Source of the DNA: Diaphorobacter caeni
GTDB taxonomy: Bacteria > Pseudomonadota > Gammaproteobacteria > Burkholderiales > Burkholderiaceae_C
Reading direction: 5' to 3'
NCBI RefSeq assembly: GCF_015354245.1
Contig: NZ_JADKYZ010000001.1
Location: forward strand, 310,001 to 374,000
Length of the DNA: 64,000 nucleotides
Positions 19,433-61,113 of this stretch are shown piece after piece. The notes below the pieces were generated by a model, which saw only the letters and a list, made by a program, of their open reading frames with translations, made no database searches and was not told the DNA's origin. The position numbers and the translations under genes are program-made. Positions within the stretch are counted from its first letter, which is position 1; each line of letters opens with the position of its first letter.

Positions 19433-20098
19433 TTAGGGCTTGCCGCCTGTCGGGAAAGGCCACGCAGCTTGAGGATTCAGCGTGGTCTGTGCAGCTGGAG
19501 CGGCAGCAGCGGCTGCAGGGGCAGCAGCGGCAGGCTTGGCGGCAGCCTTCTTCGAAGCCTTCTTGGCAGCAGGCTTCTTTGCAGCAACCGGCTTCTTCGC
19601 AGCTACGGCCTTCTTGGCGGCAGCGGGCTTCTTCGCGGCAGCAGCCTTCTTGGCTGGAGCTGCGGCCTTCTTGGCTGGGGCTGCCTTCTTGGCGGCCACG
19701 GCCTTCTTGGCTGGAGCTGCCTTCTTCGCGGCCACGGCCTTCTTGGCTGGAGCTGCCTTCTTTGCGGCTACGGCCTTCTTGGCTGGAGCTGCCTTCTTGG
19801 CGGCTACGGCCTTCTTGGCTGGAGCTGCCTTCTTCGCGGCTACGGCCTTCTTGGCTGGAGCTGCCTTCTTCGCGGCTACGGCCTTCTTGGCTGGAGCTGC
19901 CTTCTTCGCGGCTACGGCCTTCTTGGCTGGAGCTGCCTTCTTGGCGGCTACGGCCTTCTTGGCTGGAGCTGCCTTCTTCGCAGCTACGGCCTTCTTGGCT
20001 GGAGCTGCCTTCTTTGCAGGAGCAGCCTTCTTGGCCACGGTTGCTTTCTTTGCAGGAGCTGCCTTCTTAGCAGCGGTCTTCTTCGCAGTTGCCATCAT
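19433..20098 (-). CDS. Histone H1-like, Lys/Ala-rich DNA-binding protein
   Basis: A 221-residue protein made almost only of Ala, Lys, Pro and Val, like eukaryotic H1 tails and bacterial HctB/AlgP-type proteins; it is expected to bind and compact DNA non-specifically. The core is about nine tandem copies of a 12-residue unit KKAVAAKKAAPA, flanked by degenerate copies. The C-terminal tail is different: LNPQAAWPFPTGGKP. The start ATG 20098 (or the adjacent ATG 20095) follows AAGGAGA with good spacing; the frame stays open to 20128. It is transcribed alone and ends in a strong terminator. Confidence 0.92.
   Translation of the reverse strand: MMATAKKTAAKKAAPAKKATVAKKAAPAKKAAPAKKAVAAKKAAPAKKAVAAKKAAPAKKAVAAKKAAPAKKAVAAKKAAPAKKAVAAKKAAPAKKAVAAKKAAPAKKAVAAKKAAPAKKAVAAKKAAPAKKAVAAKKAAPAKKAAAPAKKAAAAKKPAAAKKAVAAKKPVAAKKPAAKKASKKAAAKPAAAAPAAAAAAPAAQTTLNPQAAWPFPTGGKP
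19673..20010 (-). repeat. 36-bp tandem repeat within the H1-like gene
   Basis: About nine near-identical 36-bp units code the 12-residue Lys/Ala/Pro repeat. Units differ mainly at synonymous positions, for example in the alternating GCGGCT, GCGGCC and GCAGCT blocks. Boundaries are approximate. Confidence 0.88.
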
Positions 20099-20289
20099 TT
20101 TCTCCTTGGGTCGATTAGCAAAGAGCACCCCGTGTCTACTTTGGACACAGAGCGATTCATGGCACCGGGATGTTGGATGTCCATCTCACTGCCACAAATA
20201 CGGTAACACCCCCACACCGCGCCTCGTGCGGGCGCTGGGTTGGTGAGGGTGTGGTTGAAAGACATGTCCTGCTGCAATCGGATGATCCA

Positions 20290-31331: not shown

Positions 31332-31400
31332 TCTTTTCGACGTTTCTTGCCGAACGTCGTTGCTGAGGTGTTTTTTCGGCTACTGCTGGGTGGTTGGGGT

Positions 31401-31886
31401 CAGGGGCCGGGACTGCCCCCGGCGGGGCAATCACTTTTTGCTTGCGCGCAAAAAGTAATCAAAAACGCGCTTTCAATACCTCCGGCGGAACTCGCTTTGC
31501 GCTGCGCGCGCCGCTCGGACAACCGCCGGAAATCAGTTTGGAAGAGGTGGTTGCGGCACGTTGCTTCGCTCGTGCCGGGGTGTTTGCGGAGTTGGGTGGG
31601 GGGGGCAGACGCCCACTGTTCTTTTGAGTGACGTTGATCCAGCGAGCAAATCAAAAATCGCGCAGCGCTGGCACCCCAGCATCTCGCGAAGTCGCGAGAT
31701 GCCCGGCACGAGCGCAGCGACGTGCCGAACACACCTCCGAGTGAACATCTAGCTCGCGGCGGTTGCCCGAGCGGCGCGCGAAGCGCAAAGCGAGTTCTGC
31801 CGCGGGTATTGAAGAGCGCATTTTTGGTGCCTTTTTGGGCAAGACCAAAAAGGTACTCCGCCGCCGGGCGGAACTCCCGGCCTCTG
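31401..31886 (+). repeat. Large palindromic intergenic repeat, copy A
   Basis: One of three related elements in this window (copies B at 35572 and C at 58216), all in the same orientation. It lies between the convergent genes ffh and miaB. The left and right halves are imperfect reverse complements over the whole length. It contains a 5' hairpin ACTTTTTGC/GCAAAAAGT (31433-31456), an inner hairpin CGGCACG/CGTGCCG (31554-31577), a central 10-bp-arm palindrome (31680-31701), a mirrored inner hairpin (31704-31727) and a 3' hairpin of 12 bp (31827-31856). The outer terminal sequence is more diverged than in B and C. Open frames across it are by-products of the palindrome. I do not recognise it as a named family. 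Confidence 0.92.
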
Positions 31887-32085
31887 CCGCCAGCACCGCA
31901 GCAAAGGCAACCCCCTCCACTGCAATTGAAGCCGCCGCACGCGGCCGCGACAAGATCATCCCCCGCCGCAACTCGGGCGAGCAGATTGCCGCAGAAACAA
32001 TCACCCGCCCCGGTGGCATCCACAGCCTGCGCCTTGAATGCCGGAACTGCCGTGCGGCGCGGCTGATCATCCAGCCGCGCGTGGC
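31887..32085 (-). pseudogene. Ribokinase (PfkB family) 3' fragment, frameshifted
   Basis: Read on the minus strand from directly after the miaB stop codon, the sequence encodes VPAFKAQAVDATGAGDCF and then GNLLARVAAGDDLVAA, which is the catalytic C-terminal block of ribokinase-type PfkB proteins (general base Asp in GAGD). The similarity then shifts into another frame (AAASIAVEGVAF), as expected after a small indel, and is cut off at the edge of repeat copy A. The N-terminal two thirds and the extreme C-terminus are absent. This is a degenerated gene, not a functional kinase. Confidence 0.8.
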
Positions 32086-35136: not shown

Positions 35137-35168
35137 AAAAGCCGTTGGGCTTGCGCTCAACGGCTTTT
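35137..35168 (-). terminator. Terminator of the tRNA-Met pair
   Basis: AAAAGCCGTTG (35137-35147) pairs with CAACGGCTTTT (35158-35168). Read on the minus strand it ends in a T-run directly after the tRNA genes; it may also stop plus-strand transcription of the phosphoesterase gene. Confidence 0.9.
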
Positions 35169-35171
35169 GAC

Positions 35172-35248
35172 TGGTGGTCGTAGAGGGACTTGAACCTTCG
35201 ACATCAGCATTATGAATGCTGCGCTCTAACCAACTGAGCTATACGACC
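35172..35248 (-). tRNA. tRNA-Met (CAT anticodon), copy 2
   Basis: A full cloverleaf is readable on the minus strand: acceptor GGTCGTA, D arm with AGCTCAGTTGGTTAGAGC, anticodon stem CAGCA/TGCTG with loop TTCATAA, T loop GTTCAAGTC, and an encoded CCA. The CAT anticodon and similarity to elongator tRNA-Met support methionine; a lysidine-modified tRNA-Ile2 also has CAT and is less likely. It is identical to the copy at 35299. Confidence 0.95.
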
Positions 35249-35290: not shown

Positions 35291-35298
35291 TGCTTGAC

Positions 35299-35375
35299 TG
35301 GTGGTCGTAGAGGGACTTGAACCTTCGACATCAGCATTATGAATGCTGCGCTCTAACCAACTGAGCTATACGACC
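35299..35375 (-). tRNA. tRNA-Met (CAT anticodon), copy 1
   Basis: Identical in sequence to the tRNA at 35172 and promoter-proximal on the minus strand. The 77 bases include CCA. The 35376-35571 stretch upstream is AT-richer and has no other recognised feature beyond the tRNA promoter it must contain. Confidence 0.95.
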
Positions 35376-35571: not shown

Positions 35572-36072
35572 GAGGGCGGAGGCCGGGACTGCCCCCGGCG
35601 GGGCAATCACTTTTTGCTTGCGCGCAAAAAGTAATCAAAAACGCGCTTTCAATACCTCCGGCGGAACTCGCTGCGTTCCTTCGTCACTCCGCTCGGGCAA
35701 CCGCCGGAAATCAGTTTGGAAGAGGTGTTGCGGCACGTTGCTTCGCTCGTGCCGGGGTGCTTGCAGAGCTGGGTTGGGCACTACATGCCCGCTGCTCTTT
35801 TGAACGACGTTGATCCCTCGAGAAATCAAAAGCCGCACAACACTGGCGCAACCGCATCTCGCGAAGTCGCGAGATGATCGACACGAGCGAAGCGAAGTGC
35901 CGAACACACCTCTTATGAAAATTCTGACTCGCGGCGGTTGCCCGAGCGGCGCGCGAAGCGCAAAGCGAGTTCTGCCGCGTGACCCCGTATTCAAAAGCGC
36001 GCTTTTGGTGACTTTTCGCGCGCAAGCGAAAAGTTACTCCGCCGCCGGGCGGAACTCCCGGCCTCCACCCTC
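35572..36072 (+). repeat. Large palindromic intergenic repeat, copy B
   Basis: Second copy of the element seen at 31401 and 58216. The ends are a 17-bp inverted repeat with one mismatch (GAGGGCGGAGGCCGGGA on the left). It contains the 5' hairpin at 35609-35632, the inner hairpin at 35731-35754, the central palindrome at 35855-35876 and a 12-bp 3' hairpin at 36008-36037 whose stem differs from copy A by compensatory changes. The mirrored inner hairpin is partly decayed. It lies between the tRNA pair and the enoyl-CoA hydratase gene, both on the minus strand. Confidence 0.93.
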
Positions 36073-58215: not shown

Positions 58216-58740
58216 GAGGGCGGAGGCCGGGACTGCCCCCGGCGGGGCAATCACTTTTTGCTTGCGCGCAAAAAGTAATCAAAAACGCGCTTTGAATACC
58301 TCCGGCGGAACTCGCTTTGCGCTGCGCGCTCCGCTCGGACAACCGCCGGAAATCAGTCTGGAAGAGGTGTTTGCGGCACTTCGCTGCGCTCGTGCCGGGG
58401 TGTTTGTGGAGTTGGGTTGGGCGACCTATGCCCGCTGCTCTTTTGAACGACGTTGATCCCACGAGCAAATCAAAAGCCGCACAACACTGCCGCAACCGCA
58501 ACCGCAACCGCAACCGCAACCGCATCTCGCGAAGTCGCGAGATGCCCGGCACGAGCGCAGCGATGTGCCGAATACACCTCCGAGTGAATATCTAGCTCGC
58601 GGCGGTTGCCCGAGCGGCGCGCGCAGCGCAAAGCGAGTTCTGCCGCGTGACCCCGTATTCAAAGGCGCGCTTTTGGTGACTTTTCGCGCGCAAGCGAAAA
58701 GTTACTCCGCCGCCGGGCGGAACTCCCGGCCTCCGCCCTC
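58216..58740 (+). repeat. Large palindromic intergenic repeat, copy C
   Basis: Third and best-kept copy of the element at 31401 and 35572. The terminal 17 bp (GAGGGCGGAGGCCGGGA at 58216-58232) reappear as a perfect inverted repeat at the right end (58724-58740). The 5' hairpin is at 58253-58276, the central palindrome at 58523-58544 and the 12-bp 3' hairpin at 58676-58705. A hexanucleotide expansion precedes the central palindrome. It lies between the convergent cytochrome c and PhoD genes. Flanks 58147-58215 and 58741-58831 show nothing else. Confidence 0.94.
58491..58520 (+). repeat. CGCAAC hexanucleotide expansion inside repeat copy C
   Basis: Five tandem CGCAAC units (58491-58520) and a partial unit precede the central palindrome. 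Copy B has one unit at this place and copy A none, so this is a copy-specific expansion. Confidence 0.93.
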
Positions 58741-60607: not shown

Positions 60608-60726
60608 GGTGGAGTGGACAGCGAAAGGTTGAGGGCTTGCGGGTGGCGCCAGTCTAGCCGTGACGCTCGATGCCCGGTCAGCGAAATGGTCAGCGTCGGT
60701 GCGTGATACCATCCGCGCCAGCGTTT

Positions 60727-60965
60727 GCAGGTGCCCACGTTCGTGGGTGAAACGGGAACAAGGTCAATCGACGAAAGGTCGGTTGGATGCCTTGGCTGCC
60801 CCCGCAACGGTAAGTAGATCAAAGCATGTCGCGCGGTTCGAGAGGACTGCGGCCACTGACGATTGGGGTTCCGGATGTCTGTCCGGGGCTTCGTCATCGG
60901 GAAGGTGAGATGCGGATGCGCACACGCGCATCGTCTATGAGCCCGGAGACCGGCCTGCAGACTTT
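60727..60965 (+). ncRNA. Cobalamin (B12) riboswitch
   Basis: The conserved blocks occur in the right order: GCAGGTGCCCAC, GGGTGAAACGGGAA, the core TGCCCCCGCAACGGTAAG, and the B12 box AGCCCGGAGACCGGCCT at 60940-60956. It ends about 150 bp before the TonB receptor start, so it should repress that transcript when adenosylcobalamin is bound. I could not define the expression platform with certainty. Confidence 0.95.
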
Positions 60966-61113
60966 CTGGTGCGATGCACTGAACCCATGACTGTCTGCGG
61001 GGTGTGGACGGCCTTCATTCTTTGTGAGGCATGGAGCGGCACGTCTGTGGCCGGACCGGAATCTCGCGCAGGGTGAGGCTGCACTTCAGACGGTCATCTC
61101 TCTGTTTGAAGAC

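What the first reader, a model, noticed from the sequence alone, without database searches (positions are those of the whole stretch)
31401..31886. Dispersed ~0.5-kb giant palindrome, copy A: hairpin stems preserved by compensatory changes
Three intergenic copies occur in 64 kb, each a long imperfect palindrome with smaller hairpins inside. The 3' hairpin in copy A has the stem CCTTTTTGG/CCAAAAAGG (31830-31853 region), while copies B and C have ACTTTTCGC/GCGAAAAGT at the same place. Both arms changed together and pairing is kept over 12 bp in all three, with an identical G-T wobble position. This implies selection on pairing, as RNA or cruciform DNA. No transposase is present and I do not recognise a named family.
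Basis: seen in the sequence. Interest (0 to 1): 0.8.

Follow-up and report, generated by a model that had tools for sequence, protein, structure and literature searches.

The report
Giant structured repeat in bacterial genomes
A half-kilobase mirror-image DNA repeat, present in dozens of places in this bacterium's genome, belongs to a widespread and apparently unnamed family whose hairpin folds are clearly preserved by evolution, although what it does is still inferred.

Summary
Copy A is one of 44 full palindromes (~490 bp) in a 6.0-Mb Diaphorobacter-like genome; 39 single arms and one mini-copy bring the total to 84 places. Each ~180-nt arm carries several stems plus an outer module (interleaved helices S1/S2, then hairpin H3). 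In 44 chosen arms from six congeners, 19 of 31 pairs change on both sides (score 0.307; shuffled 0.109; slid at most 0.058). An arm model matches 111 of 200 family genomes; an outer-module model matches 61 of 274 class genomes. A fixed H3 wobble is G·U on the centre-to-end strand, suggesting that this strand folds single-stranded. Orthologous copies are less alike than many own-genome paralogs. Full copies lie between convergent genes in 30 of 44 cases. Y1 transposase presence does not track the element (79/111 vs 68/89, p=0.42). Best reading: a giant BIME/REP-like repeat acting on transcript 3' ends, disperser unknown. RNA versus single-stranded DNA is unresolved; single arms between tandem genes show no clear orientation bias (13:10).

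The parts
31405..31882 (.). Copy A, full inverted pair of arms (core, GGCCGGG to CCCGGCC)
31360..31404 (.). Left outer tail of copy A, T/G-rich, weakly conserved
   Evidence: composition and position counts of outer flanks
31406..31429 (-). Left arm outer module: S1 (31406-31411 with 31418-31423) interleaved with S2 (31414-31417 with 31426-31429); strand given is centre-to-end
31430..31459 (-). Left arm H3, 12 bp with the fixed wobble
31481..31530 (-). Left arm H2, base stem 31481-31488 with 31523-31530
31555..31576 (-). Left arm H1
   Evidence: sequence read; not part of the covariation count
31577..31679 (.). Central spacer, variable between copies
31680..31701 (.). H0, central hairpin CATCTCGCG-AAGT-CGCGAGATG
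31705..31726 (+). Right arm H1
31755..31804 (+). Right arm H2, base stem 31755-31762 with 31797-31804
31827..31856 (+).
31857..31881 (+). Right arm outer module: S2 (31857-31860 with 31869-31872) interleaved with S1 (31863-31868 with 31876-31881)
31883..31925 (.). Right outer tail of copy A, A/C-rich
35581..36063 (.). Copy B, full element
58225..58731 (.). Copy C, full element

Best explanation
A very large REP/BIME-like interspersed repeat. SHOWN here by computation: the building block is a ~180-nt arm with several hairpins and an outer module (interleaved helices S1/S2, then hairpin H3); it occurs as inverted, mostly heterotypic pairs and as single arms, mostly at gene ends; pairing covaries in genus, family and class; one H3 wobble is kept as G.U on the centre-to-end strand; orthologous copies are less alike than many own-genome paralogs. 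INFERRED: when transcription runs past a gene end, the centre-to-end strand folds as RNA, shields the transcript from 3' exonucleases and, with the A/C-rich tail beyond the outer end, helps Rho-dependent termination; a full palindrome offers one such arm in each direction and so suits convergent genes. Present copies are mostly inherited in place and homogenised by gene conversion, which can swap whole hairpin alleles. The first dispersal needed an enzyme acting in trans that I did not find.
For: Context: full elements convergent 30, tandem 12, divergent 2 of 44; inner end of single arms faces a stop codon in 21 of 24 cases within 110 nt (26 of 39 without a distance limit). Strand: H3 wobble in 112 of 127 own arms, 38 of 44 aligned arms; in 33 modules of other genera 17 A.C against 2 G.T cells on the end-to-centre strand; 4 against 1 in 21 class-wide modules. 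Covariation. Outer tails: 40 to 20 nt outside the arm, T is 51% (full) and 45% (single) toward the element, so A-rich outward. Single arms keep intact stems: H3 8 of 8 bp in 33 of 39 against 85 of 88 in full elements, S2 6 of 6 in 37 of 39 against 83 of 88. Shared sites and homogenised sequences. Precedent for BIMEs as mRNA stabilisers and attenuators is cited in PMC2267715 (passages seen).
Against: Among 23 single arms between tandem genes 13 lie in sense and 10 in antisense to the upstream gene, not what a strictly cis-acting RNA predicts. The outer end also often faces stops (20 of 29 within 110 nt). Strand asymmetry is nearly all in two positions: elsewhere it is 9 A.C to 3 G.T, and in all own arms about equal (H3 outside the wobble 9 to 7, S2 1 to 2). 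The two pairs that extend S2 go the other way (121 G.T to 38 A.C in 127 arms; 16 to 12 in 44 arms); I set them aside because they overlap the foot of H3. No transcript data were available; Rho and exonuclease roles are untested.
Confidence: 0.42

Rival explanations
1. A non-autonomous mobile element working through single-stranded DNA: the folded centre-to-end strand is the substrate of an enzyme encoded elsewhere, and placement near gene ends only reflects selection against harmful insertions.
For: Inverted pairs with structured ends, wide spread across genera, strand-specific wobble, no clear sense bias in tandem contexts (13:10), few divergent-promoter sites (5 of 83). b-type arms are more alike in full elements than in single arms (0.921 against 0.884, permutation p 0.001), as expected if the pair is the copied unit.
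Against: a-type arms show no such difference (0.886 against 0.894, p 0.74). Eight of nine placeable sites are shared with G003, so little recent movement. Y1_Tnp presence is unrelated to the element. No target duplication could be shown.
Confidence: 0.33
2. The compensatory changes are made by mutation, not selection: template switching in quasi-palindromes and ectopic gene conversion keep both strands of each hairpin matched, and the repeat has no function.
For: Hairpins come as whole alleles with few one-sided intermediates; stem lengths change on both sides together; copies evolve in concert.
Against: Templated repair should remove the H3 wobble, yet it persists at one position in several genera and families. 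S1 and S2 interleave and both hold class-wide, 18 of 26 against a shuffled mean of 2.6, which a single-palindrome repair does not explain easily.
Confidence: 0.15
3. A double-stranded DNA landmark, bound by gyrase, IHF or a nucleoid protein or extruded as a cruciform, as proposed for some BIMEs.
For: Long palindromy and preference for convergent genes, where positive supercoils are expected (general knowledge).
Against: Arms of a full element are of different type in at least 33 of 44 cases (41 if the 8 with a third allele are counted), so arm-to-arm pairing is not what is kept; the wobble is strand-specific.
Confidence: 0.1

Closest known systems
REP / BIME (PU) repeats of enterobacteria and pseudomonads
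   Same: High-copy intergenic palindromes, single units and inverted pairs, preference for convergent and unidirectional gene pairs, G.T pairs in stems, mosaic of unit types (PMC3733652, PMC2817692: passages or abstract only).
   Different: REP units are 20-40 bp (PMC3733652 abstract); this arm is ~180 nt with several stems and interleaved S1/S2. GTAG or CGTC tags were not tested for.
REPINs with RAYT transposases
   Same: Inverted doublets with a spacer, compensatory changes in the hairpin, singlets beside doublets (PMC3116915, passages).
   Different: No element beside the one Y1 gene of G000 or of four congeners; no association in 200 family genomes; singlet stems are mostly intact.
R0/R2 and other intergenic repeats of Pseudomonas fluorescens
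   Same: Inverted-repeat elements with tail-to-tail bias of flanking genes (PMC2718517, passages).
   Different: Listed sizes 50-352 bp; R0 and R2 share ends with insertion sequences, for which I saw no counterpart here. Sequences could not be compared.
Stem-loop families Bor-1, Pae-1, Ppu-1 of Cozzuto et al. 2008
   Same: Repeated, mostly intergenic, structured; Pae-1 is a pair of adjacent stem-loops; Ppu-1 is 617 bp (PMC2267715, passages).
   Different: Sequences not available here, so membership in the present superfamily is open.
Rfam RF03046 Pseudomonadales-1 RNA
   Same: Full-length model match on the centre-to-end strand of the right arm in two paralogous copies.
   Different: 20-21 bits against a gathering score of 68, with most stems unaligned; taken as chance.

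Membership tests
REP / BIME repeats | Short unit of 20-40 bp forming one hairpin | tested here: not met
   Arm ~180 nt, several stems plus interleaved S1/S2
REP / BIME repeats | Many intergenic copies, as singlets and inverted pairs | tested here: met
   44 full, 39 single arms, 1 mini of 84 places
REP / BIME repeats | GTAG or CGTC tag at the hairpin foot | not tested
   No search was made
REPIN-RAYT system | Repeats flank a RAYT (Y1) gene | tested here: not met
   No element in the ~3.3-kb loci of five Y1 genes
REPIN-RAYT system | Y1 transposase present where the repeat is multiplied | tested here: not met
   79/111 against 68/89, p=0.42; 32 of 111 element-bearing genomes without a Y1 match at E<=0.001
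REPIN-RAYT system | Doublet arms more alike than singlets | tested here: inconclusive
   True for b-type arms, not for a-type
MITE | Terminal inverted repeats shared with an autonomous transposon | tested here: inconclusive
   Inverted structured ends present; three long pairs examined hold no transposase seen, not a systematic search
MITE | Target site duplication | tested here: inconclusive
   Intergenic DNA too diverged at the sites compared
Known Rfam RNA | Match above the gathering score | tested here: not met
   None in the elements of the window
Intrinsic terminator | GC-rich hairpin directly followed by a U-run | not tested
   No scan was run; by composition the outward tail is A/C-rich, not U-rich

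The most novel reading that the evidence does not exclude
A class-wide superfamily of structured palindromic elements, defined by an outer module of interleaved helices S1/S2 and hairpin H3 and independent of RAYT enzymes: a new kind of bacterial repeat that is copied and kept through a folded single strand (RNA or single-stranded DNA).
Probability: 0.4. Interest if true: 0.85.

Novelty: new variant of a known kind. Interest (0 to 1): 0.63.

Why it matters
REP repeats are described as units of 20-40 bp. This arm is several times larger, carries a covarying module of interleaved helices, and by covariance model reaches 61 of 274 genomes sampled across the class, whereas BLASTN with one arm found little outside its genus among 60 relatives. 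The models can be run on any genome, let one ask what moves and keeps bacterial palindromic repeats outside the RAYT framework, and give cases in which selection on pairing can be told from gene conversion.

Tried and rejected
Rejected or unsupported: RAYT-driven REPIN. RT-driven element: an RT gene is found in 6 of 6 congeners, but 5 of the 6 RT loci examined hold no element and the sixth only a 25-nt match. Known Rfam RNA; RF03046 was found in 0 of 185 class genomes, but its control was silent too, so that says little. Phage origin: no match in phages for one query; one exact H3 match in viral contigs not followed. Carrier with its own transposase: of three long pairs, one encloses a methyltransferase-like and one an ion-channel-like ORF, and the third has no ORF of 120 aa wholly between its arms. 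Empty sites at copy B in G001 and G002 exist but are too diverged to define ends. Literature: nine text searches, one of them by sequence words, listed no description that I recognised as this element. Of papers I saw only search listings and passages; figures and supplements were not seen. My first gene-context count was replaced by a stricter finder; both are home-made.

Rows dropped before counts: 44 of 138 usable arms were chosen for diversity; L088 was left out of arm counts; for A2, 29 of the 33 modules were kept and 10 own-genus modules added; one search used 26 of 30 loci (L205 own genome, L217, L219, L228 too short); one search used 21 of 27 modules parsed (L205 and five of unclear orientation left out).

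Full report
CHECK. Copy A is a highly significant palindrome (z -15, 0 of 100 shuffles). The genome belongs to a genus in which congener G001 has the contig length of Diaphorobacter aerolatus KACC 16536 and G005 that of a replicon of Diaphorobacter sp. HDW4B. BLAST scored 40 full-length copies, its limit, out of 139 first-look candidates. Two outer-end patterns (58 and 62 hits, up to 3 mismatches) resolve to 84 places: 44 full elements, 39 single arms and one mini-element.

ANATOMY. Reading from an outer end inward, an arm has a degenerate T/G-rich tail of about 45 nt, interleaved helices S1 and S2, hairpin H3 (12 bp in copy A), a long hairpin H2 with an inner stem, H1, and often a central hairpin H0. 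A full element is arm, spacer, H0, inverted arm. By S2 type the 44 full elements are 33 a/b, 2 b/b, 1 a/a and 8 in which one arm matched neither pattern; one search lists 9 arms with a third, CTCGCC-type allele. So pairing inside each arm, not between arms, is what is kept. Units in direct tandem are seen in G001.

COVARIATION. In 44 arms chosen for diversity out of 138 usable (22 own, 22 from five congeners), 19 of 31 pairs change on both sides; score 0.307 against 0.109 for shuffles (0 of 500) and at most 0.058 for slid structures; 92.1% of cells pair. In 39 outer modules of the family (29 from other genera, 10 from the own genus), 9 of 12 pairs change on both sides; 0.491 against 0.125 for shuffles and at most 0.148 slid. 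In 26 distant modules (24 outside the family), a Watson-Crick-only search finds interleaved S1+S2 in 18; 40 shuffled sets give a mean of 2.6 and a maximum of 5. Against: 'further pair types' did not exceed shuffles (311/500, 238/500), and shuffles do not remove relatedness. S1 is almost invariant in the genus set; its variation comes from the distant set. Loops of 1-2 nt would make a simultaneous pseudoknot tight (reasoned, not computed), so S1 and S2 may be alternatives.

WHICH STRAND. At the third pair from the base of H3 the bases are C.A or A.C on the end-to-centre strand in 112 of 127 own arms (62 and 50) and 38 of 44 aligned arms, that is G.U or U.G on the centre-to-end strand. In other genera 33 modules give 427 Watson-Crick, 17 A.C, 2 G.T and 3 other cells. 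In 21 class-wide modules (2 of the own family) there are 4 A.C, all at that pair, 1 G.T, 2 other and 224 Watson-Crick cells. A second position, in the H2 base, shows 27 A.C of 43. Against: outside these two positions the imbalance is 9 to 3 in 44 arms and about even in all own arms (H3 9 to 7, S2 core 1 to 2), and the two pairs that would extend S2 lean the other way (38 A.C to 121 G.T in 127 arms; 12 to 16 in 44). I set those two aside because they share bases with the foot of H3. The strand reading therefore rests mainly on one conserved wobble seen across several genera and families.

DISTRIBUTION. BLASTN with one arm finds 5 of 5 congeners and short matches (27-55 nt) in 3 of 54 other genomes. 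Arm model R1 matches 111 of 200 family genomes, 3 of them of the own genus, in 84 of 141 genera. Outer-module model R2 matches 61 of 274 class genomes, 3 of them of the own family, in 54 of 222 genera. E-values of both models are rough and stricter filters were used in these large searches. Many genomes show several copies, often as inverted pairs with the outer ends outward; in the truncated lists, read by eye, I noticed no close pair with outer ends inward and a few in the same direction. Plasmid searches gave 1 and 2 records; one query found no phage record.

EVOLUTION. Nine G000 elements could be placed by both flanks on a 400-kb piece of G003; 8 sites are occupied there, and at the ninth (copy B) only a 67-bp remnant lies nearby. 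Requiring both flanks favours conserved sites. For six orthologous full pairs, the ortholog ranks 22 to 42 of 44 in likeness behind own paralogs: same places, homogenised sequences. Re-insertion at hot spots is the alternative. At L024 the right half of the full element and its right flank align to a G003 single arm, while the left flank finds no counterpart in the stretch held. At L026 G003 has a partial arm, 6.5 kb and then a full element; ORFs in that 6.5 kb match thiolase, a DUF5938 protein, OmpW, SDR and TetR families. Synteny thus breaks at elements in two cases.

CONTEXT. With a home-made gene finder full elements are convergent 30, tandem 12, divergent 2 of 44, single arms 13, 23 and 3 of 39, and the mini-element convergent. 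A cruder finder gave 33, 43 and 8 of 84; by it, neighbouring genes in the window are convergent 10, tandem 24, divergent 9 of 43. The inner end of single arms faces a stop in 21 of 24 cases within 110 nt (26 of 39 without limit), the outer end in 20 of 29 (23 of 39). Against a strictly cis-acting RNA: in tandem contexts the arm is in sense with the upstream gene in 13 and antisense in 10.

TRANS FACTORS. G000 has one Y1_Tnp match, four of five congeners have one each and the draft G004 none; no element was found in the ~3.3-kb loci of these five. In 200 family genomes Y1 presence is unrelated to the element (79/111 against 68/89, p=0.42). RT matches occur in 6 of 6 genomes of the genus; of six RT loci, five hold no element and one a 25-nt match, though single arm L087 lies 873 bp past the G000 RT reading frame.

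SINGLET TEST. Full and single a-type arms are equally alike (0.886 and 0.894), b-type arms more alike in full elements (0.921 against 0.884, p 0.001); stems are nearly as intact in single arms. Single arms are therefore not simply decayed remnants.

JUDGEMENT. By form and placement this works like a BIME/REP, but the unit is far larger, it has interleaved helices, and the RAYT link is not met, so I do not file it as REP or REPIN. The transcript-end role is inference (0.42), with a single-stranded-DNA mobile element close behind (0.33). Nine text searches listed no name for it, but stem-loop families of Pseudomonas and Bordetella (PMC2267715, PMC2718517; passages seen) could be members and could not be compared by sequence.

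Noticed in passing
window 35167-35248 and 35294-35375: Two identical 82-nt copies holding a tRNA gene on the minus strand, 127 bp apart, just beside copy B.
   Followed up: no
window 19523-20134: Array of an 18-nt repeat, 22 overlapping copies listed in register.
   Followed up: no
window 60712-60972: Cobalamin riboswitch, 83.2 bits.
   Followed up: no
L167 and L166: RT reading frame with a long N-terminal part and a hydrophobic C-terminus, very similar in G000 and G003; RT matches of similar score occur in all six genomes of the genus.
   Followed up: partly
L064, L073: In these arms the H1 hairpin appears replaced by a different hairpin of unrelated sequence (read by eye).
   Followed up: no
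L214-type repeats: G214 C11, C33, C81: Same-direction arms about 475 bp apart in one genome, unlike the usual inverted pairs.
   Followed up: no
L259 10257-10286: Single exact match of the family-wide H3 hairpin on a contig classed as viral; may be host DNA.
   Followed up: no
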